A stretch of DNA of 64,000 bases from Aspidiotus rigidus (lineage: Eukaryota; Arthropoda; Insecta; Hemiptera; Diaspididae): NCBI GenBank assembly GCA_035079385.1, contig JAVHKY010000065.1:1514921-1578920 (forward strand), given 5' to 3'. The notes below the pieces were generated by a model, which saw nothing but the letters and a program-made list of their open reading frames with translations, was not told the origin of the DNA and did not search any database. Made by a program: the position numbers and the translations under genes. Positions 19,027-56,984 of the stretch are shown in pieces. How positions within the stretch are numbered: the stretch's first letter is position 1; every line of letters begins with the position of its first letter.

Positions 19027-21070
19027 ATTGTCATCTGTTTCAGCATTACTTACAAAATATCTCGTTCAAAATTGGCTTTGGGATATCTGGTTCAGCATTA
19101 CTTACAGAATAACTGGTTCAAAATTGGTTATGGAATATCTGATTCAGCATTGCATACGGAATATGTGGTTCAGCATAACATACAGAATATCTGCTTCAAA
19201 TTAATTATGGAATATCTGGTTCAGGGTAGCTTATGGAATATCTGGATCAGCATTGCATATGGAATATCTGGCTCAGCATTACTTACAGAATATCTGCTTC
19301 AAAATTGGTTATCATGGAATATCTGGTTCAGGGTAGCTTACGGGATCGAATATCTGGTTCAGCATTACTCAGGGAATATCTGGTTCAAAATTGGTTATGG
19401 AATACCTGGTTCAGCATTACTCACGGAATATCTGGTTCAAAATTGGTTATAGAATATCTGGTTAAGCGTTGCTTATAGAATATTTGGTTCAGCATCACTT
19501 ACAGAATATCTGCTATAACATTGTTTATGGAATTGCTGGTTCAGCATTGCATAGGGAATTATATCTGATTCAGCATATTTTACAGAGTATCTGCTTTAAA
19601 ATTGGTTATGGAACATCTGGTTCAGCATTACTTACGGAATATCCGGTTCCCAATTTGTTATGTAATATCTGGTTTGGGGTACCTTACAGAATATCTGGTT
19701 CAAAATTGGTTATGGAATATTTGGTTCAGCATTGCCTATGGAATATATGGTTCAGCATTGCTTATGGGATATCTGGTTCAGCATAACTCACGGAATATGT
19801 GGTCCAAAATTGGTTATGGAATATCTGGTTAAGCGTTGCCTATGGAATATTTGGTTCAGAATCACTTACAGAATATCTGCTATAACATTGTTTATGGAAT
19901 TGCTGGTTCAGCATTGCATAGGGAATATCTGATTCAGCATATTTTACAGAATATCTGCTTTAAAATTGGTTATGGAATATCTGGTTCAGCATTACTTACG
20001 GAATATCCGGTTCAAAATTTGTTATATAATATCTGGTTCAGCATTACTCAGAGAATATCTGGTTCAAAATTGGTTATGGAATATTTGGTTCAGCATTGCC
20101 TATGGAATATATGGTTCAGCATTGCTTATGGGATATCTGGTTCAGCATAACTCACGGAATATGAGGTTCAAAATTGGTTATGGAATATCTGGTTAAGCGT
20201 TGCTTATGGAATATTTGGTTCAGAATCACTTACAGAATATCTGCTATAACATTGTTTATGGAATTGCTGGTTCAGCATTGCCTATGGAATATGCCCTATA
20301 TGGTTCAGCATTGCTTATGGAATATCTGGTTCAGCATTACTCACGGAATATGTGGTTCAAAATTGGTTATGGAATATCTGGTTAAGCGTTGCTTATGGAA
20401 TATTTGGTTCAGAATCACTTACAGAATATCTGCTATAACATTGTTTATGGAATATCTGGTTCAGCATGACTTACAGAATATCTGCTTTAAAATTGGTTAT
20501 GGAATATCTGGTTCAGCATTGCTTATGGAATACCTGGTTTAAGATTATGTATGGAATATCTGGTTCAGCATTGCATATGAAATATGTAGTTCAGCATTAC
20601 TTACGGAATATCTGGTTCATAATTGGTTATGGAATATCTGATTCAGCATTGCATATGGAATATCTGGTTCAGCATTACTTACAGAATATCTGCATAGAAA
20701 ATTGTTTATGGAATATGTGGTTCAGGGTAGCTCACGGAATATCTCGTTCAAAATTGGTTATGGAATATCTGGTTCAGCATTCCATATGGAGTATCTGGTT
20801 CAACATTACTTAGGGAATATCCGGTTCTAAATTTTTTATGGAATATCTGGTTCAGGATAGCTTACGGAATATCTTGTTCAGCATTGCTTATGGATTATCT
20901 AGTTTAAGATTAGGTATGGAATATCTGGTTCAGCATTATTTACTGAATATCTGGTTCAAAATTGGTTATGGAATATCTGGTTCAGCATTGCATAAGGAAT
21001 ATCTGGTTCAAAATTTGTTATTGAAAGTCTGGCTCAGGGTAGCTTACGGAATATCTGCTTATTTTGTCGA
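19027..21070 (+). repeat. 26-bp minisatellite array with 364-bp higher-order period
   Basis: About 2 kb of tandem units of the form ggaatatctggttcagcatt plus about six further bases, alternating with a ggttcaaaattggttat variant. Blocks starting near 19469, 19836 and 20200 repeat the same order of variants. The offset is about 364 bp (14 units), with one 3-bp insertion. Because 26 is not a multiple of three and the unit has no stops, all plus frames stay open and give spurious repetitive ORFs. Confidence 0.92.
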
Positions 21071-39439: not shown

Positions 39440-41730
39440 CGGGGAACCCGCTATCCATTTTGTTAGGAGATTACATCCTCAGAAAACGTCCGCGTCCGCG
39501 AAGTTAGTAACCTAAGGTTAGGTTAGGTTACGGGACTTAGAAGAATTTCAAGTCTCGAGCTATATATAATAGGGGGGGGGGGGACTTGGAAGAATTTTGA
39601 CTTTCGAGCTACCGTCCGCCGTCCATCCAAAAACTTGGAAAAATTTTGAGACTCGAGCTATATATGATAGGAGGGGGACTTAGAAGAATTTCGAGTCTTG
39701 AGCTATATATGATAGAAGGGGGACTTGGAAGAATTTCAAGTCTTGAGATATATAATATGATAGGAGGGGGACTAGGAAGAATTTCGAGTCTTGAGCTATA
39801 TATGATAGAAGGGGGACTTGGAAGAATTTCAAGTCTTGAGATATATATGATAGGAGGGGGACTTGGAAGAATCGTGACTTTCGAGCTATATATGATAGGA
39901 GGGGGACTTAGAAGAATTTCAAGTCTCGAGCTATATATGATAGGAGGGGGACTTAGAAGAATTTCGAGTCTTGAGCTATATATGATAGAAGGGGGACTTA
40001 GAAGAATTTCAAGTCTTGAGATATATATGATAGGAGGGGACTTGGAAGAATCGTGACTTTCGAGCTATATATGATAGGAGGGGGACTTAGAAGAATTTCG
40101 AGTCTTGAGCTATATATGATAGAAGGGGGACTTGGAAGAATTTCAAGTCTCGAGCTATATATAATAGGGGGGGGGGGGACTTGGAAAAATTTTGACTTTC
40201 GAGCTACCGTCCGCCGTCCATCCAAAAACTTGGAAAAATTTTGAAACTCGAGCTATATATGATAGAAGGGGGACTTGGAAGAATTTCAAGTCTTGAGATA
40301 TATATGATAGGAGGGGGACTTGGAAGAATCGTGACTTTCGAGCTATATATGATAGGAGGGGGACTTGGAAGAATCGTGACTTTCGAGCTATATATGATAG
40401 GAGGGGGACTTAGAAGAATTTCAAGTCTCGAGCTATATATGATAGGAGGCGGACTTAGAAGAATTTCGAGTCTTGAGCTATATATGATAGAAGGGGGACT
40501 TGGAAGAATTTCAAGTCTCGAGCTATATATAATAGGGGGGGGGGGACTTGGAAAAATTTTGACTTTCGAGCTACCGTCCGCCGTCCATCCAAAAACTTGG
40601 AAAAATTTTGAAACTCGAGCTATATATGATAGAAGGGGGACTTGGAAGAATTTCAAGTCTTGAGATATATATGATAGGAGGGGGACTTGGAAGAATCGTG
40701 ACTTTCGAGCTATATATGATAGGAGGGGGACTTAGAAGAATTTCGAGTCTCGAGCTATATATGAAAGGAGGGGGACTTGGAAGAATTTCAAGTCTCGAGC
40801 TCTATATGAAAGGAGGGGGACTTGGAAGAATTTCAAGTCTCGAGCTATATATGATAGGAGGGGGACTTAGAAGAATTTCAAGTCTTGAGATATATATGAT
40901 AGGAGGGGACTTGGAAGAATCGTGACTTTCGAGCTATATGATAGGAGGGGGACTTGAAAGAATTTCAAGTCTTGAGCTATATATGATAGAAGGGGGACTT
41001 AGAAGAATTTCAAGTCTTGAGATATATATGATAGGAGGGGACTTGGAAGAATCGTGACTTTCGAGCTATATATGATAGAAGAGGGACTTGGAAGAATTTC
41101 AAGTCTCGAGCTATATATAATAGGGGGGGGGGGGGACTTGGAAAAATTTTGACTTTCGAGCTACCGTCCGCCGTCCATCCAAAAACTTGGAAAAATTTTG
41201 AAACTCGAGCTATATATGATAGGAGGGGGACTAGGAAGAATTTCGAGTCTTGAGCTATATATGATAGAAGGGGGACTTGGAAGAATTTCAAGTCTTGAGA
41301 TATATATGATAGGAGGGGGACTTGGAAGAATCGTGACTTTCGAGCTATATATGATAGGAGGGGGACTTAGAAGAATTTCAAGTCTCGAGCTATATATGAT
41401 AGAAGAGGGACTTGGAAGAATTTCGAGTCTCGAGCTATATATGATAGGAGGGGGACTTAGAAGAATTTCAAGTCTCGAGCTATATATGATAGGAGGGGGA
41501 CTTGGAAGAATTTCGAGCCTCGAACTATATATGATAGGTGGGGGACTTGGAAGAATTGTGACTTCCGAGCTATATATAATAGAAGGGGGACTTGGAAGAA
41601 TTTCGACTCTCGAGCTATATATGATAGGAGGGAATGTAGAATGATAATTTTGATTTGAATTATATGACAAGATTATCAACTCAGTTCCACACCACCTGAG
41701 AGGTCGAGTTAAGGAATTGCGGGTTCCCTG
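39440..41730 (+). repeat. 45-bp satellite array inside a GGGAACC-family TIR element
   Basis: About 45 tandem copies of a 45-bp unit (gagctatatatgataggagg, then gggacttggaagaatttcaagtctc in variants) fill 39540-41640. A unique punctuation block containing taccgtccgccgtccatcc occurs at about 39611, 40204, 40573 and 41162, giving alternating spacings near 590 and 370 bp. The outer ends gggaacccgc (39442-39451) and gcgggttccc (41719-41728) are inverted, as in the dispersed TIR elements that carry the same unit. The unit length is a multiple of three, so both strands show long spurious ORFs. Confidence 0.9.
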
Positions 41731-42060: not shown

Positions 42061-42401
42061 TGTAGCGTCTCAGCCCCCGCCCTCGGGGAGAGATGGCACA
42101 GTCAACCACTAACAGCAGTACATTAACCAAGGTGGAAAAAACTTCAGGGATGCCAGGAACTTTAATTAATTTAGTAAAAGGGAAAAGAACCAAAACCCGT
42201 AATTTTAAATCGAACGTAGACCACAATTTTTTGTAACACCAAAGTGCCTACTGCTAGGGACCGTGTATCCCAGTACAAAAGAGAAATTCAGGGTGGCTGG
42301 GCGTAAAAGATAGACCCACCCCTAGTGACATTAACGGCATATGTCACCGACGAAACATTAACTGTAAGATAAATGTCATTGCACTATTTTGAGAATGAAG
42401 A
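42061..42401 (-). repeat. Extra 341-bp copy of the LTR 3' end
   Basis: An exact-length copy of the first 341 plus-strand bases of the LTR sits directly against the outer end of the full 3' LTR. It lies inside the target duplication. It carries the base shared with the 5' LTR (A) where the adjacent full LTR has T at about 42482. Confidence 0.9.
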
Positions 42402-45327
42402 TGTAGCGTCTCAGCCCCCGCCCTCGGGGAGAGATGGCACAGTCAACCACTAACAGCAGTACATTAACCAAGGTGGAAAAATCTTCAGGGATGCCAGGAA
42501 CTTTAATTAATTTAGTAAAAGGGAAAAGAACCAAAACCCGTAATTTTAAATCGAACGTAGACCACAATTTTTTGTAACACCAAAGTGCCTACTGCTAGGG
42601 ACCGTGTATCCCAGTACAAAAGAGAAATTCAGGGTGGCTGGGCGTAAAAGATAGACCCACCCCTAGTGACATTAACGGCATATGTCACCGACGAAACATT
42701 AACTGTAAGATAAATGTCATTGCACTATTTTGAGAATGAAGAGAACACAAATCTCAAACAGACATGGGGTACTTGTATTTTATATATATACGAGTATTGA
42801 ACATTTCACGTATCGGCATACGAATACATTAAAATGAATTAAAATGAATAGAGAATCGATAGGTATGCATTAAGATGAATCCTAAAAATGTAAAATCAAT
42901 ATGAAAATTTCCTTAACTGCTAAACACATAACATGAATCACAGGATTAAAACTTGCGAGAAAGTCATTTTCTCAAAATTTTGATAAAACAGAATAATAGA
43001 ACTTTTGGATAAAATTTGACGATCCAAAACAAAGAGAAAAATAAAATAAAGGAGGAGATTACATCCTGAACTTTTGGAGAGGTTCTCTCTACCAAGAAAA
43101 TATTCGGACCATAAAGACGAGAGAAGAACACTTCTCACAGGCCCAACGATAAGTCTTAAACAGACAGAAATAGTGCTGAGATGTGTTTACAAACAGAAAT
43201 CAGTTCGATACCGACGGGTTCTTCCCGCTCTGGCACCCCAGGAACCTAAAAAAATGAGTACGCTCGCACGGAAAAAATACGTAAAGTATTAAAATAAGTA
43301 ATTGAGTAAAATCAGAAAACAGACATAGCAACGTGGAGCGACTCGTATAAAGAACAACATCTCGCACGGGACAAGTGCAGACCTCGAAGAGCCTGCGAGA
43401 AAGACCTCCACTCGGCCATATGACCGAACAATCTCATTTCGATAAGAGAGATTTCGAAAGAGAAAGAAAAAATTAAAACTCAAAGCAAAATTTCGTGGTC
43501 AAAAATTAAGTCAAAACCTATACACGTAAAATACGTAAAGTAGGAAACGGAAAATACGGTACTCACCGATATAGCGACGATCCGACGATGAACTGTGCAC
43601 AATTCCTCGGGACGCGCTGAAATAAAAATTCAATTAAAGAGTTGGACCACCCTTCCAATTATGAATAAAGGAATGGACTAGACTCATGACTCCTCGCAGA
43701 TTTTTCCCACATAGAAAAAAAATATAAGGCACTTAACTTAGGCAACATAAAATGAAATGCAGAAAGGCTTAAAAAACAGAAGGAAAAAAAAACTGAATAG
43801 ACTATAAATAAAAATTTGGCGGTCAGCTGGTCATGAGTGGCGATAGCAGGTGCTTTCATCCTCGGTGTTGACAGATGGCTTCGTCGTTAGGATCGAGCGA
43901 TGAGCGGCGAATCGAATGATCTTAGGTATGGACCATCGTGCTCCGAAGACCATGGTGATGTTGGTCAACACGACGGTGATTATGATCGGGTTACGTGGTC
44001 ATGTTGGCTGGGGAGGTTGGTCCCCGCGATAAATAACTAGCCCTCCATGGTCATAATTACTCCACAATAACTTTTAGAAACATCACTGACGAAATTAGTA
44101 ATTACCGAACTGGGTCAGCCTACACAAAAAATCTCGTATTTCAAATGAGAGGCGCACTTCTCTATTAATACGAATAAGTTAGGTATGCGAAATTGATACA
44201 AACATACGGACTTTTATAAAATTGACATTATGGAACGGCGCACTTCAGCAAAAATTCGCGTCGTCGGAAACAAAATTTTTCAGAGCTTCGGTTATAGACG
44301 TACTTGGCAATCACAGCCGTTAACGACGAGCTCGATAGAATAAGACGATCACTTCGTCACGACGTATACACACGAGATATCATCGACCGGAGCGTCGAAA
44401 TTCGAGACATAAAAGCTAGTACCGACTCGAGACACCACTAAACAGAGACTCGAATTTCACCCTCGATTCGAACCAGAGACCAGAGACATAGACCCAGTTC
44501 CTCTTCATGTAGCCAGTTCGCGTCAAAGAGATTTCCCATCTCTTCAGAGGAGGAAGAAGCCGCGAAACAGACGTCCAATCATGGAACAGTGCCCCTGTCG
44601 CGATTGGATTTAGTCCGAGAGCTCGACTCCACCCCGACAAATGAACGATCACTTGCCGGAATGAGAGAGACAGAAGCTGCCCGGACGACACTCCATCTCT
44701 GTCTAGCTTTGTCCTAAAAGGGTGAGTACGTCGGAACCTTTACCAGCATTCCAATTGTAGAAAGTAACAATTTTTTGCTTGGAGTCACAGAGAAGAAAGG
44801 ACTAGACGACTCGCGGACGATTTGAACTTACAATGCCCCGATGCTCTGAGTCTATTATATCGCTGGGACACAATACGAAAGGATATGGAAGATTTACAAC
44901 CAGTTGTAAATATGAAAATTCGAAACAAACTCGATATTTTAGAAACTCGCAAATGCTCAGGAATGCCTATCTCGGCATTCAATTTTATTACAGCCTCGTC
45001 ATTTAAAAGACTTAATTAAATGCAGGACGAAGGGAAATTGCTCCAGAATGACGGATACTCCAGCAAAAAATATAACATCCTATTTAGTTTTTATACGATC
45101 AGGTATTGTGTACGCTGTACGTGGGTAACGATTCGACTTCATCGTGCATTGATACACCCTAAAAGAGAAAAGAAGTCGCTCAGTGATTTACAACGCCTAT
45201 CCGGACGGATAGCGAGAAATATAATAATTTCGACCAGGTCGCTTCGCTCGTCCTTCGACATCACAATTGAATAGAACCACCGAAAAAATACGACATCGTC
45301 TAATAGGCGCCACAATGTGACGCAACA
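42402..45327 (-). repeat. 3' LTR (2,926 bp)
   Basis: Same length and sequence as 54059-56984. On the minus strand it starts TGTTGCGTC and ends GACGCTACA (TG...CA). Several short frames are open in it but none looks protein-coding. LTRs of nearly 3 kb are unusually long. Confidence 0.95.
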
Positions 45328-45628: not shown

Positions 45629-48600
45629 TTACTCATCTCGCTTTCTGATTAGAGTGAGCTGCCTAACGTTGGCCATTGCCTCGTGTCCGCTACAAGTATC
45701 ACGGATCAAATATGCATTCGAGCCTATCTTCTTGATGACTAGAAATTCACCATCATATCTTTTGAAAAACTTCTTCGTAAGTCCGTAATACGCTTGCGAC
45801 AACTTGTGCTGGCGAACAGCCACGACATCCCCTTCCTGGTACTGAGTGTATGTTTTCCCAGATATCATGTCATGGTGCACGTCTCGCTCAAAGTCCAGCG
45901 TTTTAAAATTAGCTACGTAGGCCCAAATACGTTCGCGCGGAGATAGATCTTGCGTGATGATGTTTACCCAACTGCGGTACTCCTTGATCGCATTTTGGGC
46001 CATGTAGTCTACTTCGAGGTTGCCGAAATCGACGGAATGTCCAGGAACATGTTTGATCTGGATGTTCTCCTTGCCAAACACGTTCCTGACATCGATGAGC
46101 CTCTCTAACCATTCGTTGTTCTGATACGTGGCGAACTTTTGGTTTGTCTTCGTCAATAGCCCCTCATCAATTAGGTCAGTAAGGTAGGCCGAATCAGTGT
46201 GAATTACTACCTTACTGACCCTGTTCGCATAGGCTACCTGCAGAGCGCTTATAACCGCGTATATCTCTGCCTGATTGTTGTTGACAGCCGGTAACACCAC
46301 TTTCGCAACATTAGCTTTGTGGCTCTGGGCTACCCACACCGCGATCGCTGCAACATGGTAGTTTTTCTGCGATACGGCGCCGTCACAGTAGACGTGCGCC
46401 CAACCTTTGTCATCGTATGGAAATTTAAACGGAGCTGCTTTGCGTTCTAATCGCACGTTTTGAATGCACACGTTCTCTGTTAAAGTCTTAGTCTTATGTT
46501 CGATCAGGACTACTGGATTCGGCACACGAATTTCGACACTCGACATTGGCAGAGGATTCAACTCTGTGATCCCCAAGATTTGGTTCGGGGAGTATCCGTG
46601 GGATTTTGGCATTGCATTCAACGTTTTTTCAATGCGTTTCAGGTCTCGGTACCATCTAGAATGATCATTTCCAGGGTTCTGGTTAGCATTCATACACAGC
46701 CGAATCTTCTCACCTAGATCTCTCATTCCCCTTTCTGCGGGGTTACTCTGAGGAGTATACGCCATGGTGAATTTTGGTTTTATTTGGTGTTCATGGAGAA
46801 ATTCCACCCACTGATTTGAGTTAAACTGCCGAGCATTGTCGGACAGAACTGAATTTATTGGGATATCCAGCGCATCGTAGGTCTCCAACACATGCCCCAT
46901 TGCACGGACAAAACTTTCAGTCTTCACGGACTTGAGTGGGTGATATAGCACGAATCCTGATAGACGATCGATGGCTACAAATACAGCTATTATGCCGCCT
47001 CGTCTAAGGGGTAACGGCCCGAAAATATCTACCGATACTACATCTCCCGGGATCCTCGCTTCAACTCGGCTTCTTCGCGGGTGGATGGGTTTATTCGAAT
47101 TCTTATTGTGCTTGCACACGACGCACCTGCTTAACGTTGCGGCTACGTGCCTTTTCAGGTCTTTATAATAGAACTGCCTTTTTATAAGAGCAGTAGTCTT
47201 CTCAATTCCTGCATGGATATAGAACTCGTGAAAAAAGATGATGATGTCTATAATAGCGTGGGCCGGCACCACTAATAACTGAGCCCCACCTTCGGCAATC
47301 TTGTAAAGTACACCTTCGTCAATGCAAAACTTGGACTGGTTGGCAGTCTTTATCTGACTCATTACTTTGACACAGAAAGGATCTGTATTCTGGTGAGCTC
47401 GTATGTCCTCAAACAGGGTACACAGTAACTCAGGTGCTTCATGGTCAGCTCCCGCTACCGTAGCGCGAATTGCTGTCCACCTTTCCTCAATATTTTCACA
47501 ACTTTCAATCGCTGGGGCCCATTCGTTCTCGAACATGGATTGGATTTCAACGGGTTCGCCCGCAGTAACTTGGGCGATCATTTCAAACTGACGCAACATT
47601 TGGAACGTGCTTTCGAAAGCATTGTTCTCATATCCTTCAGGATCAACATCGAACGAGTTGATGAACGTATACCACTTCGCGCATACTCCATTCACCTCAG
47701 CCAAGTCACGAATTGTACGCAGCAAGGTCAGCGCCTTTGAGCCCAGTTTAATACGGTACCCAAGTAATAAGTCTTTGTACCTTTTCAGAACATAGTAGAT
47801 GGAGTATAGCACTTGAAGTACTTTTGGTTTCCTAACAATCGTGTCTGGGAAGCGGCAGTTCGTCATAGTGATTATATTTACCTGACCGTCCTCCACGCAC
47901 TGAAAAATGCAACCGGTCATCGCATTCTCAACAAAGTGGACTACTAAATAGAAAGGCTCTCCAAACTTGGGTTGTTTGAGCTCGAATTCTCTGAAGAACT
48001 CTTTCTTTAGATTATAATATGCCAGTTCATGGCTTTCATCAGTCTTAATAGGGTTTCCACCTGAGAGCAAATCAAGTAGAGGCGAAACCAGAGATGAATA
48101 CTTTGGTATAAAACGGCTGTACCAGTTAAGGAAACCGACGAGTTGCTGGACAGACCGTTTAGAGGGAAGATGAAACTTTGAGTTCTTAAAGTACTTCTTC
48201 TCAAACTTTGTAAAGAACTCCCCTTTGTCAAAATTCTTTGATATCACTCCGTCAGTGATCGTGTGACCCAGAAACTTCAGCTTAGGTCTAAATAAATGGG
48301 TTTTCTTTAGTGATAGCGTCATGCCTGATTCTAAGACATTACGAACAATTTTCTCGAGCAGGGATATGTGCAGTTCGTAATCGTTCGTCTGTACCTTGAC
48401 GTCATCTACGTATATTTTGACGTTAGTTGCTTCTTCAATTCCTTGGAAAATCACCCCTCGGACCACTCGGTTGAATACCGAACCACTGACCTTGGTGCCA
48501 AACGGTAAGCGCCGGTACTCGTAAGTCTCACCATTTATTTGGATTCCAAGGAACTTACTAGTTTCTTTTCCGAGGGATATTTGTAAGAACCCGTGATTGA

Positions 48601-50449
48601 AGTCGAAACTTGAGAAAATACCGCCCAAGCTTTCGTCAAATAAGAAACTTTCTATACGTGGTGGGTCATGGTGCTCGGCACACACAATTTGGTTGAAAGC
48701 AGCCGCGTCTACACACATCCTTATAGATCCGTCTCCCTTTGGACTAATAACTATCGGGTGGACGTACTGAGTATTGGACCTTGCTATTACTTCCAACTCT
48801 AGAAGTCGCTTAATTTCACTCTCGATAGCTTTCTGATACACTTTCGGGTATCCGTATTTCTTCACCTTCCATGACTCGGTCGCTTTAAATTTCAGGTCAA
48901 TCTCGCCGCCGTTCCATTTCCCTAATTGTTGACGAAACACCATAATATATGGAGACAATCTGCAGAACGCTTGCTCAGCCTGCTCTCTCGTGATGATCTC
49001 CTCGGCCATCGCCTCATATAGTTTCTCCTTGAGCGCTGATAATAGTTCGGATCTCTCATCCCCAGGCGAGCTTCGCATCACGCTTAATGACAAATTTGCG
49101 AACTCTTTTCGGTGATCATACACAAACAACTCAGGTACTCTTTCTTCAGAAGCGTCTAGAACTTGTAGGGTAAAACGACGGGCCGCTCCGGATAACGGCA
49201 CAGTAATTTCAGGTTCACCCTTCCCTGGAGGGTTCAGGTTCATTAGCAAGTTTCTGTAATCAATGACTGCGCCGTACTTTAGAAGGAAATTTCCCCCAAG
49301 TAATACATCTTCAGTCAATCCAGTGACAATGAGCCCTGCAATGTAAACAGTCCGGCCACTTAATTTCGCCTCTACAATAGCAATAAAGTCAATGGATTGG
49401 GATTCTCCAACCGCTAACGCTATACGCACTGGGTATTTGATCTTTAAAAAGACTATAGAGCCCGGAGACGTCCGGTATATACGGTCTGTAAACTCCTTAT
49501 TAAATACGCATACAGTGGCTCCGCTGTCGACCAACATTAGGGTGCACGCCAGTCCGATGTCTCCATCAATGTGGAACAATACCCCCTCGCTCTCTTCCAG
49601 AGTAAGGCCTTGATCAACTAGGTCCCGGCGTAAAACGGTTTTACGGGGACTATCGCTTTCCATTTCGGCTTGGGCCTCCCGCATACTCAGTTCTCCTAGG
49701 CTCAGTTGCCCGGCAGACTTGGCTTCGTTAGTCACTACAGCGATCCGATCTATACAATCTGAGACCGCCTGTTTTTGAAATTGAGTGATTGACCCTCCGA
49801 CCTTGGAGTAAACGTTTCCCTTCAGTTGAACATTGACTTCAGCCGGGTAACCATCATCGTCGGTTATTACCACATCGCCACCGCGATGTCGTACTGTGTA
49901 GAAAACAGTGTCTAAATACACCAGGCGGGTGTTTTCCGGAAATTGGTCGTTCACGGACTTGTAAACGTTTCGAATCTCTTGATAGAAAGCCCATTCGCGG
50001 AAATTGTTGTTCCCGGGATGTGGCGGAGGAATTACCAGTAAGATAAAGTCCACCCTCTTGTCGAGGAGGCGACTCACAATTTTTAATAGACTCTTGTGGA
50101 AGCCAGCGGCTTCCCTTTTGTGACTCAACGCCTGGTCCGAAAATCCAGTAGTTAGTGCGACGAATTGGTGAAACTTGGAGGCAGTCTCAACTGCATTGAG
50201 AAGATAATCTATTGTGATAAACTGGTATACCAAAAAGAACTTTTTCAGCTTAGAGTTGTGTTGAGTGACCGTTTTCACATTGAAGAATTTCAAAAAGTCA
50301 AAGAAGAGTGTGTCACCAATCAATTGAAAAATCTTGAAGAGTCGGAAAGGCCCACCAGCCGGGAATCTATCTGGACGATTGGCCAATTCCGCGAGGTTAT
50401 CCCCCTCCTCAGGAGTTACTGGCGGAGGGGGATCCTTCAGTTTTCCGGC
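45629..50449 (-). CDS. pol: Pol polyprotein (PR-RT-degenerate RH-IN with embedded RNase H)
   Basis: The frame opens after a stop at 50452-50450 and is reached from gag by -1 frameshifting. Residues here are counted from the TTG at 50386 (1,585 codons, no internal stop). Residues 1-235 are unassigned. Protease: LVDSGATVCVF (287). Reverse transcriptase: about 500-770, catalytic Asp595 (FSSFDF), LPFG (627), YVDD (659-662), FLGH (705). Residues 800-900 have the position and outline of the usual RNase H but lack its acidic residues. Integrase: HHCC zinc finger (H1053, H1058, C1088, C1091) and catalytic D1120, D1183, E1218. A second RNase H occupies about 1328-1470 with D1335, E1374, D1398, H1450, D1460. 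The integrase C-terminal GPY/F-like domain is at about 1515-1580 (KRYDGEF, GSNAYLI). The products would make and integrate a DNA copy of the element RNA. The intact frame suggests recent activity. Confidence 0.92.
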   Translation of the reverse strand, partial: AGKLKDPPPPVTPEEGDNLAELANRPDRFPAGGPFRLFKIFQLIGDTLFFDFLKFFNVKTVTQHNSKLKKFFLVYQFITIDYLLNAVETASKFHQFVALTTGFSDQALSHKREAAGFHKSLLKIVSRLLDKRVDFILLVIPPPHPGNNNFREWAFYQEIRNVYKSVNDQFPENTRLVYLDTVFYTVRHRGGDVVITDDDGYPAEVNVQLKGNVYSKVGGSITQFQKQAVSDCIDRIAVVTNEAKSAGQLSLGELSMREAQAEMESDSPRKTVLRRDLVDQGLTLEESEGVLFHIDGDIGLACTLMLVDSGATVCVFNKEFTDRIYRTSPGSIVFLKIKYPVRIALAVGESQSIDFIAIVEAKLSGRTVYIAGLIVTGLTEDVLLGGNFLLKYGAVIDYRNLLMNLNPPGKGEPEITVPLSGAARRFTLQVLDASEERVPELFVYDHRKEFANLSLSVMRSSPGDERSELLSALKEKLYEAMAEEIITREQAEQAFCRLSPYIMVFRQQLGKWNGGEIDLKFKATESWKVKKYGYPKVYQKAIESEIKRLLELEVIARSNTQYVHPIVISPKGDGSIRMCVDAAAFNQIVCAEHHDPPRIESFLFDESLGGIFSSFDFNHGFLQISLGKETSKFLGIQINGETYEYRRLPFGTKVSGSVFNRVVRGVIFQGIEEATNVKIYVDDVKVQTNDYELHISLLEKIVRNVLESGMTLSLKKTHLFRPKLKFLGHTITDGVISKNFDKGEFFTKFEKKYFKNSKFHLPSKRSVQQLVGFLNWYSRFIPKYSSLVSPLLDLLSGGNPIKTDESHELAYYNLKKEFFREFELKQPKFGEPFYLVVHFVENAMTGCIFQCVEDGQVNIITMTNCRFPDTIVRKPKVLQVLYSIYYVLKRYKDLLLGYRIKLGSKALTLLRTIRDLAEVNGVCAKWYTFINSFDVDPEGYENNAFESTFQMLRQFEMIAQVTAGEPVEIQSMFENEWAPAIESCENIEERWTAIRATVAGADHEAPELLCTLFEDIRAHQNTDPFCVKVMSQIKTANQSKFCIDEGVLYKIAEGGAQLLVVPAHAIIDIIIFFHEFYIHAGIEKTTALIKRQFYYKDLKRHVAATLSRCVVCKHNKNSNKPIHPRRSRVEARIPGDVVSVDIFGPLPLRRGGIIAVFVAIDRLSGFVLYHPLKSVKTESFVRAMGHVLETYDALDIPINSVLSDNARQFNSNQWVEFLHEHQIKPKFTMAYTPQSNPAERGMRDLGEKIRLCMNANQNPGNDHSRWYRDLKRIEKTLNAMPKSHGYSPNQILGITELNPLPMSSVEIRVPNPVVLIEHKTKTLTENVCIQNVRLERKAAPFKFPYDDKGWAHVYCDGAVSQKNYHVAAIAVWVAQSHKANVAKVVLPAVNNNQAEIYAVISALQVAYANRVSKVVIHTDSAYLTDLIDEGLLTKTNQKFATYQNNEWLERLIDVRNVFGKENIQIKHVPGHSVDFGNLEVDYMAQNAIKEYRSWVNIITQDLSPRERIWAYVANFKTLDFERDVHHDMISGKTYTQYQEGDVVAVRQHKLSQAYYGLTKKFFKRYDGEFLVIKKIGSNAYLIRDTCSGHEAMANVRQLTLIRKRDE
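45977..46405 (-). other. Embedded RNase H1-like domain within integrase
   Basis: Pol residues about 1328-1470. The motifs are VYCDGAV (D1335), NQAEIYAVISAL (E1374), VVIHTDSAYL (D1398) and HVPGHSVDFGN..VD (H1450, D1460). The spacing between the five residues (39, 24, 52, 10) follows RNase HI (in E. coli D10, E48, D70, H124, D134: 38, 22, 54, 10). HVPGHS is typical of cellular RNase H1 rather than of the Ty3/Gypsy resident domain. It lies after the DDE core and before the GPY/F-like domain. Confidence 0.88.
50399..50446 (-). promoter_or_regulatory. Programmed -1 ribosomal frameshift signal between gag and pol
   Basis: In the minus-strand RNA the heptamer G-GAA-AAC (50446-50440) precedes the gag stop UGA (50439-50437). 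After a 6-nt spacer comes a perfect 10-bp GC-rich stem (AUCCCCCUCC at 50433-50424 with GGAGGGGGAU at 50408-50399) and a 15-nt loop. The pol frame is -1 relative to gag and overlaps it by 13 nt. The P-site slip GAA to GGA mispairs at the middle base, so the heptamer is not ideal; the A-site slip AAC to AAA is standard. Confidence 0.82.
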
Positions 50450-52056
50450 TTATTTGTGTGTGTGCTGGAATTCGCGTTTCCTTTCTCGGAAAAGCCCGTG
50501 TCCTTCTTATCTTTCTGATCAGACCTTCTGTTGTCTAACGGGTCGTATAACTTGCCACTCTCTCCGCCTCTCGACTTGGTGGCATTGTTTGAATGGCTCG
50601 TGGGTGGATTCGTATTCTGCTCTTTCCGACCGGTCGTGGTGCCGTATTGACTATAGTTCGGTTTATTTCCAAAACTCTTCCAGCGACCTTTACCACCTTT
50701 CTCGGAACTCTCGCTCGTCGTTGTCTTGCTAGCAGGTTCCTTGTTACTGAAATCACTCGGATGCACAACATTTATAACCAGGCTCTTGAAGTCAGCAAAC
50801 GACTGACATCGGCCTACTCGTAAGAGATCGCGCTTTTTGGCCGGCATCTTTTCGATGAGTCTTTTAATAATATCTGAAGTACTGAGCTTAACCTTGGTAA
50901 GCGCTGAGAGTCGTGCGTGCCAGCTATCTAATTGTTGCACAAAAAATGTTGGGTCACCTTCCCGATACGTTATCTTAGCCTCGTCGAACTCTCTCAGGGC
51001 GAGCTCCTGAAGATCAGAGTTCCAGTAGTGTTCAAGAAAGGCTTTCTGTATGTTCGAGAGAGATTCCTTTTCATCCGGGATACCTCCTGCCCACGCCGGG
51101 TCGCTGACTTGGACCAGCCTTATGAAAAATCTAGTCTGCTCCCGGGGAGGTATCGCCCGGTTAGCAATCGTGCTATTGAATAGCTGTACAAACCTATCGG
51201 GGGAGATCTTCCCATCTCCGCGGTAAGGTCGACACTGACGGGACACCGCCTCGTACAAAGATTCGATGTACTTATTGTACTTGTGAGCGATCTCGATTTT
51301 ACGGAGCTCAGACGACTCAGTAACAATGCTACTAGTAGGCGGGGGTATTCCACTATTGGATGCTGAGGTGGACTCTGCCCGTTCCTCAGTCCTAACGAGC
51401 CCTCTTTCTCGCTCATTAACCCCTGACTCCTTTTCGAGCCCCGCTTGCTCCGAAATCATATCTGACAAACTTCGTATCACTTTCTCCGGTCTCCCATCTG
51501 CGGAGGTCCCGAATAATAGCGGGTCGTGCTCAACGCGTGAATTCCGTACCTGTTCAGCTTGACTGCTTATGGAACTAGGGAGGTTGTCTATCTGAGGGAG
51601 GTTTTGTTGGGGCACCGACGTTATCAATCCTATGTTCGGATCCGGAGTACGACTTTTGGTCAACGTTCCCATTATGTGGTCTAGAGCTTTCAGGGTAGCA
51701 AGTTCTCTCTCGTTCCTAAGCTTCTCTTCCCGTTCGTGACGTTGTTTCTCCTCTTCGCGTCGCGCCCTGTCTTCATCGTCCTTCCTGTCCATCCGTTCCA
51801 ACATACGGAACATTAGAGAAGTAAGCAATTCATTCGATTGGTGACTCGACGTTTGGGGCTGCTGGGAATTTGACTGCTCATTTTCGTTAGATCTTCCCGT
51901 TTGACTACGATCTCGAACCTCGTTATCGTTTGCAGTTTCTTTCTGCATATTATTCGCAGCCTCATTTTCGGAACATTCTTCATCGTCTATTTGGTCTCCG
52001 TCGGAGTCATTGAGAGGGTCTAGCTTTTGAAGACGTTTGGATTTGCGCTTCGACAT
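50437..52056 (-). CDS. gag: Gag polyprotein
   Basis: The ATG at 52056 (MSKRKSKR) gives 539 residues; the frame is open seven codons further upstream without an ATG. The N-terminus is acidic and low-complexity. A charged coiled-coil-like stretch follows (RRMDRKDDEDRARREEEK-like, about residues 90-130). A capsid-like helical region comes next (about 265-435; FVQLFNSTIANRAIPP, AFLEHYWNSD, REGDPTFFVQQLDSWHARL), matching the Ty3/Gypsy Gag layout. The C-terminal tail is Lys/Ser/Gly-rich. No CCHC zinc knuckle is present; the tail has no suitable cysteines, so RNA binding presumably relies on basic residues. It ends at UGA directly after the frameshift heptamer. Confidence 0.9.
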   Translation of the reverse strand: MSKRKSKRLQKLDPLNDSDGDQIDDEECSENEAANNMQKETANDNEVRDRSQTGRSNENEQSNSQQPQTSSHQSNELLTSLMFRMLERMDRKDDEDRARREEEKQRHEREEKLRNERELATLKALDHIMGTLTKSRTPDPNIGLITSVPQQNLPQIDNLPSSISSQAEQVRNSRVEHDPLLFGTSADGRPEKVIRSLSDMISEQAGLEKESGVNERERGLVRTEERAESTSASNSGIPPPTSSIVTESSELRKIEIAHKYNKYIESLYEAVSRQCRPYRGDGKISPDRFVQLFNSTIANRAIPPREQTRFFIRLVQVSDPAWAGGIPDEKESLSNIQKAFLEHYWNSDLQELALREFDEAKITYREGDPTFFVQQLDSWHARLSALTKVKLSTSDIIKRLIEKMPAKKRDLLRVGRCQSFADFKSLVINVVHPSDFSNKEPASKTTTSESSEKGGKGRWKSFGNKPNYSQYGTTTGRKEQNTNPPTSHSNNATKSRGGESGKLYDPLDNRRSDQKDKKDTGFSEKGNANSSTHTNKPEN

Positions 52057-54058
52057 TCTACTACGAGGTGGTGTCACTCAGATAGGAAAAAATCGAACTC
52101 GAATGCAGTGCCTAACGCAGAAGCTTATCTGTGAGAATAACCCGACGCTTTATGCTTGCCCTCTAACAGAAATATCTCTATCTAGCACATTCGCTGCGTC
52201 AATACGAGATAAAGGAATCTCTTGCACAAAATTACAGAGAAATCAGAGTTTGAAAAATAATATTTTCTAAGTGTCAACTAGGATCTACCTACGACGCTAA
52301 AATATAGAAGTCTTCTACAGACAAGAAAGTAATCGTATTACTGAAATTTATCAATCATAAAAAACACACGGGGAAACCGTTTCCCCAGCCAACAAGACGC
52401 TCACCATATTCGCGCTCACGCCAAACAAAATATACAACCCTTTTTACCCACTTGCACTTTCGCTTTATAGGTATTGGTATCGTGATGTGTCTCTCGTACA
52501 TTTATCTCGAAAAAGACGCACACCTTTCTAATTCTATTTTTACCTGCTGGACCGCACTCACTTACATTATACGTTAACGTAAATTCTATAACCTATAAAC
52601 CAGCTACGCCGATACGCGAGAAGTAGAACACATGTGAAGCACAGTGCGAGGACAAGGTACGGGCACTAACCCTTCAGTATTGGTCGTTGACCTAGTGCTT
52701 AACGTTTCACGATAACAGGTCAACGCACGTGAACCAGTTCTGTGTTGCACCCTTCTAACGATGACACAGTAGCTACCCTTTCACTCTCGTTTGTACGAGA
52801 GTAGTTCGAACGATATTCGTGACCGGAAAAACTACGGGCAGTATTTTAGTAGGTCTAAGTGATAACGACAAAGATTACATTACGATTACAGGTTAATTAT
52901 TGGTTTCAATTATTTTAACTGTCAAAGAGTAATTTTGTTTATTATTAAATATGGACTATTATTATCGTAAAGATTATTTTCTCCTTACGTTAAAATCAGA
53001 GAAACAAGTTGCCCCCTGAATCTTTATATTAATCAGCAGACGACTTGGTAAAGTAGACTACACGACAAGGCCAAAGCCGATCAGCAAAGAGGCTACACAG
53101 AAACCTACCCCAGGGAGACATCCGTGAAACACCAGAAAAACAAACAAACAGACGAAAGAAAGTGTCGTGTTCATAACTGACTGAGATCACAATCATACAT
53201 TCGAACAGCCCTTTTTTCTAATAAATAGTGCATACGTCACCTATGAGCCCATAGGTAGTCCAGATTCAGTCCGCAACATAAGGTACCAAATGGGCGTATT
53301 TGGCTGTGTGACCTCATGAAGGGTTAGGGTTCTCGCATTATCCCACGCAAGCGTGTATTTTATGCAGCCCCATCTCCACCTGTCCGCATTCCTGATGGTA
53401 AGAATGAAGAGTATGCTGAACTCTTCGAACGTATATAGAGAAAGTGACACAGTCAGAGACAAGACGACTTAAGGTCCCTAACTACTCAATAAATTTCTCT
53501 ATGTCTTCATCTCATCCGAGACCAGACGGCTTTTCTCGCATTCTCCGAAGACACAGTCGCCCGACCAAAGAACCAAAATACTCGACAAAGCGATCGAGGA
53601 GAGACACCTCGAAGATTGTAGTCCACTGGACGAATATAACAGACAAGTAGGTTAAAATAACAGATCAAGACGTGAAGATCGGGACTTGCCCCCAGAGTAC
53701 CGAGGCAATCCCTACTCAAACATTACATACGGAAAACGAGACGTAGCAACGAAAAGCATACATTTCTCGGCAAAATAATAAGCAAAGAGTGAATAGATAA
53801 AATTCGAATATAATAAGTCAAGATACTTGTCCCCGCAACTGTGAATGCCCCCAGAATGTTTACAGCTTTGTGTTCTCTTCAAGAGGCTGGACAAGGCTAA
53901 AAGTAAATCTATTCCTTCCAAAACAGGGAGTGAAAGGGAAAAAAATAAAACAGAAGGTTAAAAACAAGGAAACAAAATATAAAAAGAAGTCCCTTAAATA
54001 GGAAAATATTTCTAATCCAAAGAGACACTGTCGGTCCCCACCAGGGATGCCATAATTC
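52057..54058 (-). other. Long untranslated leader of the LTR element
   Basis: About 2 kb between the 5' LTR and gag. No frame of protein-like composition was seen. It should contain the packaging signal and any splice donor, but none could be assigned. Confidence 0.6.
54034..54053 (-). other. Candidate primer-binding site
   Basis: Six nucleotides after the LTR end the minus strand reads TGGCATCCCTGGTGGGGACC, which starts with TGG as tRNA-primed sites do. I could not assign the tRNA. A second TGG 9 nt on (TGGTGGGGACCGACAG) is an alternative. Confidence 0.4.
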
Positions 54059-56984
54059 TGTAGCGTCTCAGCCCCCGCCCTCGGGGAGAGATGGCACAGT
54101 CAACCACTAACAGCAGTACATTAACCAAGGTGGAAAAAACTTCAGGGATGCCAGGAACTTTAATTAATTTAGTAAAAGGGAAAAGAACCAAAACCCGTAA
54201 TTTTAAATCGAACGTAGACCACAATTTTTTGTAACACCAAAGTGCCTACTGCTAGGGACCGTGTATCCCAGTACAAAAGAGAAATTCAGGGTGGCTGGGC
54301 GTAAAAGATAGACCCACCCCTAGTGACATTAACGGCATATGTCACCGACGAAACATTAACTGTAAGATAAATGTCATTGCACTATTTTGAGAATGAAGAG
54401 AACACAAATCTCAAACAGACATGGGGTACTTGTATTTTATATATATACGAGTATTGAACATTTCACGTATCGGCATACGAATACATTAAAATGAATTAAA
54501 ATGAATAGAGAATCGATAGGTATGCATTAAGATGAATCCTAAAAATGTAAAATCAATATGAAAATTTCCTTAACTGCTAAACACATAACATGAATCACAG
54601 GATTAAAACTTGCGAGAAAGTCATTTTCTCAAAATTTTGATAAAACAGAATAATAGAACTTTTGGATAAAATTTGACGATCCAAAACAAAGAGAAAAATA
54701 AAATAAAGGAGGAGATTACATCCTGAACTTTTGGAGAGGTTCTCTCTACCAAGAAAATATTCGGACCATAAAGACGAGAGAAGAACACTTCTCACAGGCC
54801 CAACGATAAGTCTTAAACAGACAGAAATAGTGCTGAGATGTGTTTACAAACAGAAATCAGTTCGATACCGACGGGTTCTTCCCGCTCTGGCACCCCAGGA
54901 ACCTAAAAAAATGAGTACGCTCGCACGGAAAAAATACGTAAAGTATTAAAATAAGTAATTGAGTAAAATCAGAAAACAGACATAGCAACGTGGAGCGACT
55001 CGTATAAAGAACAACATCTCGCACGGGACAAGTGCAGACCTCGAAGAGCCTGCGAGAAAGACCTCCACTCGGCCATATGACCGAACAATCTCATTTCGAT
55101 AAGAGAGATTTCGAAAGAGAAAGAAAAAATTAAAACTCAAAGCAAAATTTCGTGGTCAAAAATTAAGTCAAAACCTATACACGTAAAATACGTAAAGTAG
55201 GAAACGGAAAATACGGTACTCACCGATATAGCGACGATCCGACGATGAACTGTGCACAATTCCTCGGGACGCGCTGAAATAAAAATTCAATTAAAGAGTT
55301 GGACCACCCTTCCAATTATGAATAAAGGAATGGACTAGACTCATGACTCCTCGCAGATTTTTCCCACATAGAAAAAAAATATAAGGCACTTAACTTAGGC
55401 AACATAAAATGAAATGCAGAAAGGCTTAAAAAACAGAAGGAAAAAAAAACTGAATAGACTATAAATAAAAATTTGGCGGTCAGCTGGTCATGAGTGGCGA
55501 TAGCAGGTGCTTTCATCCTCGGTGTTGACAGATGGCTTCGTCGTTAGGATCGAGCGATGAGCGGCGAATCGAATGATCTTAGGTATGGACCATCGTGCTC
55601 CGAAGACCATGGTGATGTTGGTCAACACGACGGTGATTATGATCGGGTTACGTGGTCATGTTGGCTGGGGAGGTTGGTCCCCGCGATAAATAACTAGCCC
55701 TCCATGGTCATAATTACTCCACAATAACTTTTAGAAACATCACTGACGAAATTAGTAATTACCGAACTGGGTCAGCCTACACAAAAAATCTCGTATTTCA
55801 AATGAGAGGCGCACTTCTCTATTAATACGAATAAGTTAGGTATGCGAAATTGATACAAACATACGGACTTTTATAAAATTGACATTATGGAACGGCGCAC
55901 TTCAGCAAAAATTCGCGTCGTCGGAAACAAAATTTTTCAGAGCTTCGGTTATAGACGTACTTGGCAATCACAGCCGTTAACGACGAGCTCGATAGAATAA
56001 GACGATCACTTCGTCACGACGTATACACACGAGATATCATCGACCGGAGCGTCGAAATTCGAGACATAAAAGCTAGTACCGACTCGAGACACCACTAAAC
56101 AGAGACTCGAATTTCACCCTCGATTCGAACCAGAGACCAGAGACATAGACCCAGTTCCTCTTCATGTAGCCAGTTCGCGTCAAAGAGATTTCCCATCTCT
56201 TCAGAGGAGGAAGAAGCCGCGAAACAGACGTCCAATCATGGAACAGTGCCCCTGTCGCGATTGGATTTAGTCCGAGAGCTCGACTCCACCCCGACAAATG
56301 AACGATCACTTGCCGGAATGAGAGAGACAGAAGCTGCCCGGACGACACTCCATCTCTGTCTAGCTTTGTCCTAAAAGGGTGAGTACGTCGGAACCTTTAC
56401 CAGCATTCCAATTGTAGAAAGTAACAATTTTTTGCTTGGAGTCACAGAGAAGAAAGGACTAGACGACTCGCGGACGATTTGAACTTACAATGCCCCGATG
56501 CTCTGAGTCTATTATATCGCTGGGACACAATACGAAAGGATATGGAAGATTTACAACCAGTTGTAAATATGAAAATTCGAAACAAACTCGATATTTTAGA
56601 AACTCGCAAATGCTCAGGAATGCCTATCTCGGCATTCAATTTTATTACAGCCTCGTCATTTAAAAGACTTAATTAAATGCAGGACGAAGGGAAATTGCTC
56701 CAGAATGACGGATACTCCAGCAAAAAATATAACATCCTATTTAGTTTTTATACGATCAGGTATTGTGTACGCTGTACGTGGGTAACGATTCGACTTCATC
56801 GTGCATTGATACACCCTAAAAGAGAAAAGAAGTCGCTCAGTGATTTACAACGCCTATCCGGACGGATAGCGAGAAATATAATAATTTCGACCAGGTCGCT
56901 TCGCTCGTCCTTCGACATCACAATTGAATAGAACCACCGAAAAAATACGACATCGTCTAATAGGCGCCACAATGTGACGCAACA
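54059..56984 (-). repeat. 5' LTR (2,926 bp)
   Basis: Partner of 42402-45327, TG...CA termini, followed outside by the acat target duplication (56985-56988). The transcription start of the element should lie inside it; no TATA box was assigned. Confidence 0.95.

What the first reader, a model, noticed from the sequence alone, without database searches (positions are those of the whole stretch)
45977..46405. A complete RNase H1-like domain embedded inside the integrase of a Ty3/Gypsy-type element
Seen in sequence: between the DDE core (D1120, D1183, E1218) and the GPY/F-like C-terminal domain of Pol lies a domain with all five RNase HI catalytic positions (D1335, E1374, D1398, H1450, D1460) at family spacing and a cellular-type HVPGHS motif. 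Established: Ty3/Gypsy elements carry RNase H directly after RT, and second RNase H copies known in some lineages usually sit next to the first. Inference: a cellular RNase H1 or a related domain was captured into integrase. This gives an enzyme that would digest RNA from the integrase end of the polyprotein, or a fused IN-RNase H.
Basis: partly seen in the sequence, partly recalled or inferred. Interest (0 to 1): 0.92.

Follow-up and report, generated by a model that had tools for sequence, protein, structure and literature searches.

The report
RNase H built into a retrotransposon integrase
A family of young, virus-like jumping genes carries an RNA-cutting enzyme domain of the kind normal cells use, placed inside its DNA-inserting enzyme, apparently in place of its own worn-out copy; this is an unusual rearrangement of a well-known replication machine.

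Summary
Pol (1585 aa, window 45629-50386, minus strand) runs: SGNH-like domain, protease, RT, native RNase H, integrase NTD and core, second RNase H, integrase CTD. The second RNase H has an RNase H1 fold; among solved structures human RNase H1 is nearest, and it is unlike resident Gypsy RNase H. It is a lineage trait: D-E-D-H-D is invariant in 13 of 13 elements compared, and all 32 near-full-length same-lineage integrase cores listed in the host genome are followed by it. It is constrained almost as strongly as the integrase core. A second lineage in the same genome carries a related RNase H after the CTD; one capture with a later move is favoured, not proven. I call it a new variant of a known kind (dual-RNase H LTR elements); nine full-text searches showed no such arrangement. 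No activity was measured, and the host is unidentified.

The parts
42061..45327 (-). 3' LTR (2926-bp unit 42402-45327 plus a tandem 341-bp copy of its + strand left end, 42061-42401)
54059..56984 (-). 5' LTR, 2926 bp, one mismatch to the other LTR; TG...CA ends; 4-bp direct repeat ACAT outside 42061 and 56984
50437..52077 (-). upstream ORF, 546 aa, in gag position; no Pfam match over cut-off
45629..50386 (-). Pol ORF, 1585 aa
49715..50341 (-). N-terminal SGNH/GDSL-hydrolase-like domain of Pol (residues about 16-224), GDT where GDS is canonical
   Evidence: AlphaFold2 model; Foldseek
49283..49540 (-). aspartic protease (PF13975, 22.0 of 28.2 bits: below cut-off in the window; 32.8 bits, over cut-off, in homologue P0002)
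48257..48742 (-). reverse transcriptase core, YVDD at residues 659-662 (start placed by comparison with P0002)
47651..48037 (-). native Gypsy RNase H (PF17919 over cut-off, PF17917 below), catalytic residues lost: tether-like
47099..47266 (-). integrase H2C2 zinc-binding domain
46733..47053 (-). integrase catalytic core, D1120, D1183, E1218
45968..46426 (-). second RNase H, cellular RNase H1 type, D1335 E1374 D1398 H1450 D1460 (Pol residues 1321-1473)
45632..45967 (-). integrase CTD: helical lead-in plus SH3/GPY-F-like domain (GEF)

Best explanation
This is a young Ty3/Gypsy-type LTR retrotransposon of a lineage whose Pol acquired a cellular RNase H1-type catalytic domain and keeps it in the linker between integrase core and integrase CTD. 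The old RNase H after RT has become a catalytically dead, tether-like domain. The integrase-borne domain therefore most likely supplies the RNase H steps of reverse transcription (template removal, primer removal), reaching the RT-bound hybrid from an integrase that stays joined to RT or assembles with it in the particle. Shown: domain order, predicted fold, intact active-site residues, lost native residues, conservation, lineage. Inferred: catalysis, the role in reverse transcription, RT-IN association.
For: Domain order in the window and in 4 of 4 homologues scanned out of 7 held (P0002, P0006, P0007, P0015). D-E-D-H-D and the integrase D,D,E in 13 of 13 aligned. Native RH, 13 lineage-A members: first, second and third Asp 0 of 13, Glu 0 of 13; three ordinary Gypsy Pols keep the three Asp in 3 of 3 and the Glu in 2 of 3 as aligned. 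Nearest solved sequence is human RNase H1, E 9.4e-10; a retroviral RNase H E 0.014; 1goc (E. coli, recalled) E 0.75. Structure. Synonymous sites saturated (pS 0.76 or more) with pN 0.25-0.33 in 15 of 15 pairs of 6 host subfamilies, slightly laxer than the integrase core (pN 0.18-0.28). All 32 near-full-length lineage-A integrase cores listed have RNase H matches directly downstream; 29 of the 32 are uninterrupted over the whole 323-residue C-terminal piece. Precedent for trans action: in Ty3 the RNase H of one RT subunit serves the dimer, and integrase aids cDNA synthesis through close association with RT (passages of PMC5371799).
Against: No activity, expression or protein-processing data. 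About 675 residues separate YVDD from D1335, so the usual fixed RT-RNase H spacing (recalled) does not exist in cis. Lineage-A domains lack the WK.NGW segment of cellular RNase H1 (12 of 12 rows), so hybrid binding may need another domain. The integrase core is modelled poorly and the Foldseek alignments to integrase have rmsd near 25 A, so relative geometry is untested. In an earlier alignment one of 7 members (P0006) has an Asp at the second native position, beside a gap.
Confidence: 0.72

Rival explanations
1. The integrase-borne RNase H serves integration, not reverse transcription: it trims RNA left at LTR ends or opens R-loops at the target, while a host RNase H serves reverse transcription.
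For: It is physically inside integrase. The host has at least one cellular-type RNase H1 gene with introns (L054; L053 probably another).
Against: The native RNase H has lost its catalytic residues in 13 of 13 lineage-A members, the pattern reported where a second RNase H domain is present in retroviruses and plant and oomycete elements (PMC10508981 passages). A related RNase H in lineage B lies outside integrase proper, after the CTD.
Confidence: 0.15
2. Two independent captures of cellular RNase H1: one into integrase (lineage A), one at the Pol C-terminus (lineage B).
For: AU tests do not reject trees joining only A or only B with cellular RNase H1 (p 0.305 and 0.363); A and B differ in place and linker.
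Against: A+B versus cellular RNase H1 is supported 89/88 (29 rows) and 97/88 with 10 bacterial sequences (32 rows). A and B share a CTD more alike to each other than to ordinary Gypsy (hhalign 98% against 71% and 69%), an SGNH-like N-terminus in B by eye only (sequence) and a degenerate native RH (B keeps the Glu in 3 of 3).
Confidence: 0.3
3. Local duplication or rearrangement of the element's own RNase H.
For: AU test does not reject lineage A plus native Gypsy RH as one side of a branch (p 0.146).
Against: Native RH is still in place. Profile match to native RH 0.36%, to cellular RNase H1 99.75%. No PF17917/PF17919 match in the C-terminal piece at E<=1. The catalytic His and the GN.E.D region have no counterpart in the three native Gypsy RHs (alignment).
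Confidence: 0.03
4. Proteolysis frees the RNase H as a separate enzyme and integrase works as two pieces or without the CTD.
For: Pol is normally cleaved (recalled); cleavage sites were not examined.
Against: Core, RNase H and CTD stand in one open frame in 29 of 32 listed host copies; the stretch from RNase H to CTD is predicted as long helices.
Confidence: 0.1

Closest known systems
Retroviruses, lokiretroviruses and Odin retrotransposons (tether plus new RNase H)
   Same: Native RNase H degenerated to a tether; second RNase H of fungal/metazoan type with a full active site (PMC9040795 passages; PMC10508981 passages)
   Different: Their second RNase H directly follows the tether (passages); here it lies inside integrase. 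Their sequences were not in my trees.
Plant Tat and oomycete Chronos/Archon Ty3/Gypsy elements
   Same: Gypsy elements with two RNase H domains and degenerate native RH; Tat shows several positions of the extra domain (passages; section 5)
   Different: Their extra domain is archaeal-type (Arg in place of His); none of Tat structures #1-#5 is described as inside or after integrase (section 5 of PMC10508981)
Eukaryotic cellular RNase H1
   Same: Catalytic-domain fold and D-E-D-H-D residues
   Different: No hybrid-binding domain match, no WK.NGW segment, embedded in integrase
Bdelloid rotifer LTR elements with a GDSL ORF3
   Same: LTR element with an SGNH-type protein (PMC5408684 passages)
   Different: There a separate ORF3 and standard PR-RT-RH-IN; here a Pol N-terminal domain and a second RNase H

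Membership tests
Ty3/Gypsy LTR retrotransposon | Paired LTRs with TG...CA and a short target duplication | tested here: met
   2926-bp LTRs, one mismatch, ACAT flanks
Ty3/Gypsy LTR retrotransposon | Pol order PR-RT-RH-IN | tested here: met
   (PR below cut-off in the window; over cut-off in P0002); with extra domains
Ty3/Gypsy LTR retrotransposon | RT falls in the Ty3/Gypsy clade | tested here: inconclusive
   RT tree holds only 13 rows, no Copia, BEL or retroviral outgroup
Dual-RNase H elements (retrovirus/Odin/Tat/Chronos type) | Second RNase H with full catalytic set | tested here: met
   13 of 13
Dual-RNase H elements (retrovirus/Odin/Tat/Chronos type) | Native RNase H catalytically degenerate | tested here: met
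   0 of 13 keep any of the three Asp or the Glu; in the alignment one of 7 has an Asp at the second position beside a gap
Retroviral/Odin/Chronos arrangement | Second RNase H directly after the native one | tested here: not met
   It lies after the integrase core
Archaeal-type additional RNase H (Tat, Chronos, Archon) | Arg at the fifth active-site position | tested here: not met
   His in 13 of 13
Eukaryotic RNase H1 catalytic domain | Fold and D-E-D-H-D | tested here: met
Eukaryotic RNase H1 whole protein | N-terminal hybrid-binding domain | tested here: not met
   No PF01693 match at E<=1 in the C-terminal piece
Resident Gypsy RNase H duplicate | Profile similarity to Gypsy RNase H | tested here: not met
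   hhalign 0.36%; no PF17917/PF17919 match in the C-terminal piece
Any RNase H | Hydrolyses RNA in RNA/DNA hybrids | not testable with these tools
   No assay possible

The most novel reading that the evidence does not exclude
A bifunctional integrase: the element's only working RNase H has left the reverse transcriptase and lives in the core-CTD linker of integrase, so reverse transcription is completed in trans by the integration machinery, after a single RNase H1 capture that changed place within Pol (after the CTD in lineage B, inside integrase in lineage A).
Probability: 0.5. Interest if true: 0.85.

Novelty: new variant of a known kind. Interest (0 to 1): 0.72.

Why it matters
In the dual-RNase H elements described in the papers I saw, the new domain follows the native RNase H, lies upstream of RT, or sits in a separate ORF. 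Here the only RNase H site with intact residues is on integrase, in a lineage that is conserved, present in several public protein sets, and recently mobile (LTRs differing at 1 of 2926 positions). That makes testable whether RT and RNase H must be coupled in cis at fixed spacing, and how domains are exchanged within Pol. It also adds a further case of native RNase H decay beside a new one, the step associated with the origin of retroviruses.

Tried and rejected
Resident-RH duplication: rejected on profiles, not on the tree alone. Assembly error or chance fusion: rejected by 29 uninterrupted copies in six subfamilies and 7 outside proteins. Host RNase H1 through the hybrid-binding domain PF01693: the only hit (L048) looked ankyrin/ANKLE2-like (name recalled), not RNase H1; cellular RNase H1 exons were found instead in L054 and L053. 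IMG/VR viral contigs: two scans, no relative. The RT tree cannot root A, B and ordinary Gypsy. dS is saturated in all RNase H pairs, so no dN/dS ratio is quoted for it. The RNase H tree was flagged for long branches meeting (native rows, P0014), which is one reason for the second tree. Host group by nuclear-receptor count: not completed, so species and phylum stay unidentified; an env-like ORF in L044 and the ANKLE2-like gene suggest an animal (recalled features). Nine paper searches (each listing capped at 10-20 rows) showed no RNase H inside or after integrase; the 2015 paper PMC4408406 is not held, and Repbase was not available.

Full report
Observation. The window holds one long minus-strand Pol frame of 1585 aa (45629-50386) and a 546-aa upstream ORF (50437-52077). 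Pfam gives, in order: an aspartic protease below cut-off, RVT_1, RT_RNaseH_2 (34.6 bits, cut-off 29.8), Integrase_H2C2, rve, RNase_H (E 1.7e-19) and an SH3_Tf2-1 match below cut-off. The element is bounded by 2926-bp LTRs that differ at one position, with TG...CA ends and ACAT outside both ends, 14,924 bp in all; the left LTR carries an extra tandem 341-bp copy of its end. I infer a recent insertion.

The lineage. The host genome (441 Mb, 102 contigs, unnamed) holds 29 copies matching essentially the whole 323-residue C-terminal piece, none with an internal stop: 7 at 100% as rounded (open frames 982-1625 aa) and 22 at 49-55% (110 of 110 candidates scored; lower bounds). The integrase-core search (150 of 760 candidates scored) lists 32 lineage-A cores of at least 55% identity over most of the query (7 + 16 + 9); all 32 have RNase H matches just downstream, in three (C12, C16, C20) split or broken. 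Shorter fragments were not counted. Outside the genome, 7 Pols (P0002-P0005 JGI, P0006 a source marked lgn, P0007 and P0015 NCBI) have it (6 hits of 2662 candidates, one more); organisms unknown. Order was checked by Pfam in 4 of the 7 and by alignment in all 7, the CTD of P0003 being cut short. D-E-D-H-D and the integrase triad are invariant in 13 of 13. In 15 of 15 pairs among six host subfamilies synonymous sites are saturated in the RNase H while pN is 0.25-0.33, against 0.18-0.28 in the integrase core and 0.32-0.50 in the linker.

The native RNase H. Three ordinary Gypsy Pols of the same genome (L043-L045) keep the three catalytic Asp in 3 of 3 and the Glu in 2 of 3 as aligned. Thirteen lineage-A members keep none of the four (0 of 13 each); three lineage-B members keep no Asp and the Glu in 3 of 3. 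An earlier alignment of 7 A members agreed except for an Asp beside a gap at the second position in P0006. This is the tether pattern reported for retroviruses, Odin, Tat, Chronos and Archon (passages of PMC9040795, PMC5348765, PMC10508981).

Lineage B. L039, L041 and L042 have an ordinary core-CTD integrase followed by a linker of about 200 aa and a C-terminal RNase H; L002 likewise. The nearest solved relative of the L039 domain is also human RNase H1 (E 7.5e-12). Trees: lineage A 100/99, A+B 89/88, A+B+cellular versus native and non-LTR RNase H 98/96 (29 rows, long branches flagged); with 10 bacterial RNase HI chosen from 80 fetched loci, P0015 added, and native, non-LTR and P0014 rows left out, A+B versus cellular 97/88 (32 rows). 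Both trees are unrooted and do not say whether the source was eukaryotic or bacterial. Against one capture, AU tests reject none of A+native (p 0.146), A+non-LTR (0.091), A+cellular (0.305), B+cellular (0.363). A and B share a CTD with a common loop (hhalign 98%; 71% and 69% with ordinary Gypsy; P0003 left out of the A set). I take one capture with later change of position as likelier than two.

Mechanism. With the native residues lost, the integrase-borne site is the only intact RNase H in Pol, about 675 residues after YVDD. It lacks the WK.NGW segment of cellular RNase H1 (12 of 12 rows), as if hybrid binding is shared with another domain. In Ty3, RNase H of one RT subunit serves the dimer and integrase aids cDNA synthesis through close association with RT (passages of PMC5371799), so an integrase-supplied RNase H is plausible. 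This is inference.

Novelty. Tat structures #1-#5 place the extra domain next to RH, upstream of RT, in ORFs before pol or before gag, or as two sequential copies; none inside or after integrase (section 5 of PMC10508981). The passages seen on Troyka and on Cer1 describe one RNase H. Passages of PMC5408684, PMC6431247, PMC8775202 and PMC3985635 show no such order. Nine full-text searches found none in the rows listed; Repbase and most subscription journals were not covered.

Noticed in passing
window 49715-50341 (-): Pol begins with an SGNH/GDSL-hydrolase-like domain: top Foldseek hits include PAF acetylhydrolase, the Oskar CTD and GDSL lipases, best E 5e-5 (whole model mean pLDDT 65). The Ser nucleophile is not conserved (GDT in the window and P0002, GDG in P0015, GDS in L046), so it may be a non-enzymatic, perhaps RNA-binding, version as in Oskar (recalled).
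   Followed up: partly
P0007 residues 1621-1673: A CC2D1A/B DM14 domain (PF21528, 29.9 bits, cut-off 24.6) follows the integrase CTD in one relative from the NCBI source; DM14 proteins bind ESCRT-III (recalled).
   Followed up: no
window 42061-42401: A 341-bp tandem copy of the LTR end lies inside the 4-bp target duplication, so it probably arose during or after insertion.
   Followed up: partly
window 39633-41632: 45-bp minisatellite array of 44 copies just beside the element; a second array of 26-bp units at 19033-21057.
   Followed up: no
L044 2-1072 (-): An ordinary Gypsy element of the same genome is followed by an ORF with RKRGLINVVGRISKYLFGSLD, which resembles insect errantivirus env (recalled).
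   Followed up: no
L002, L046 and relatives: A fused gag-pol family with SGNH-like domain (by eye), degenerate native RNase H and C-terminal RNase H: nine near-identical RNase H matches, six of them in open frames of 2519-2520 aa.
   Followed up: partly
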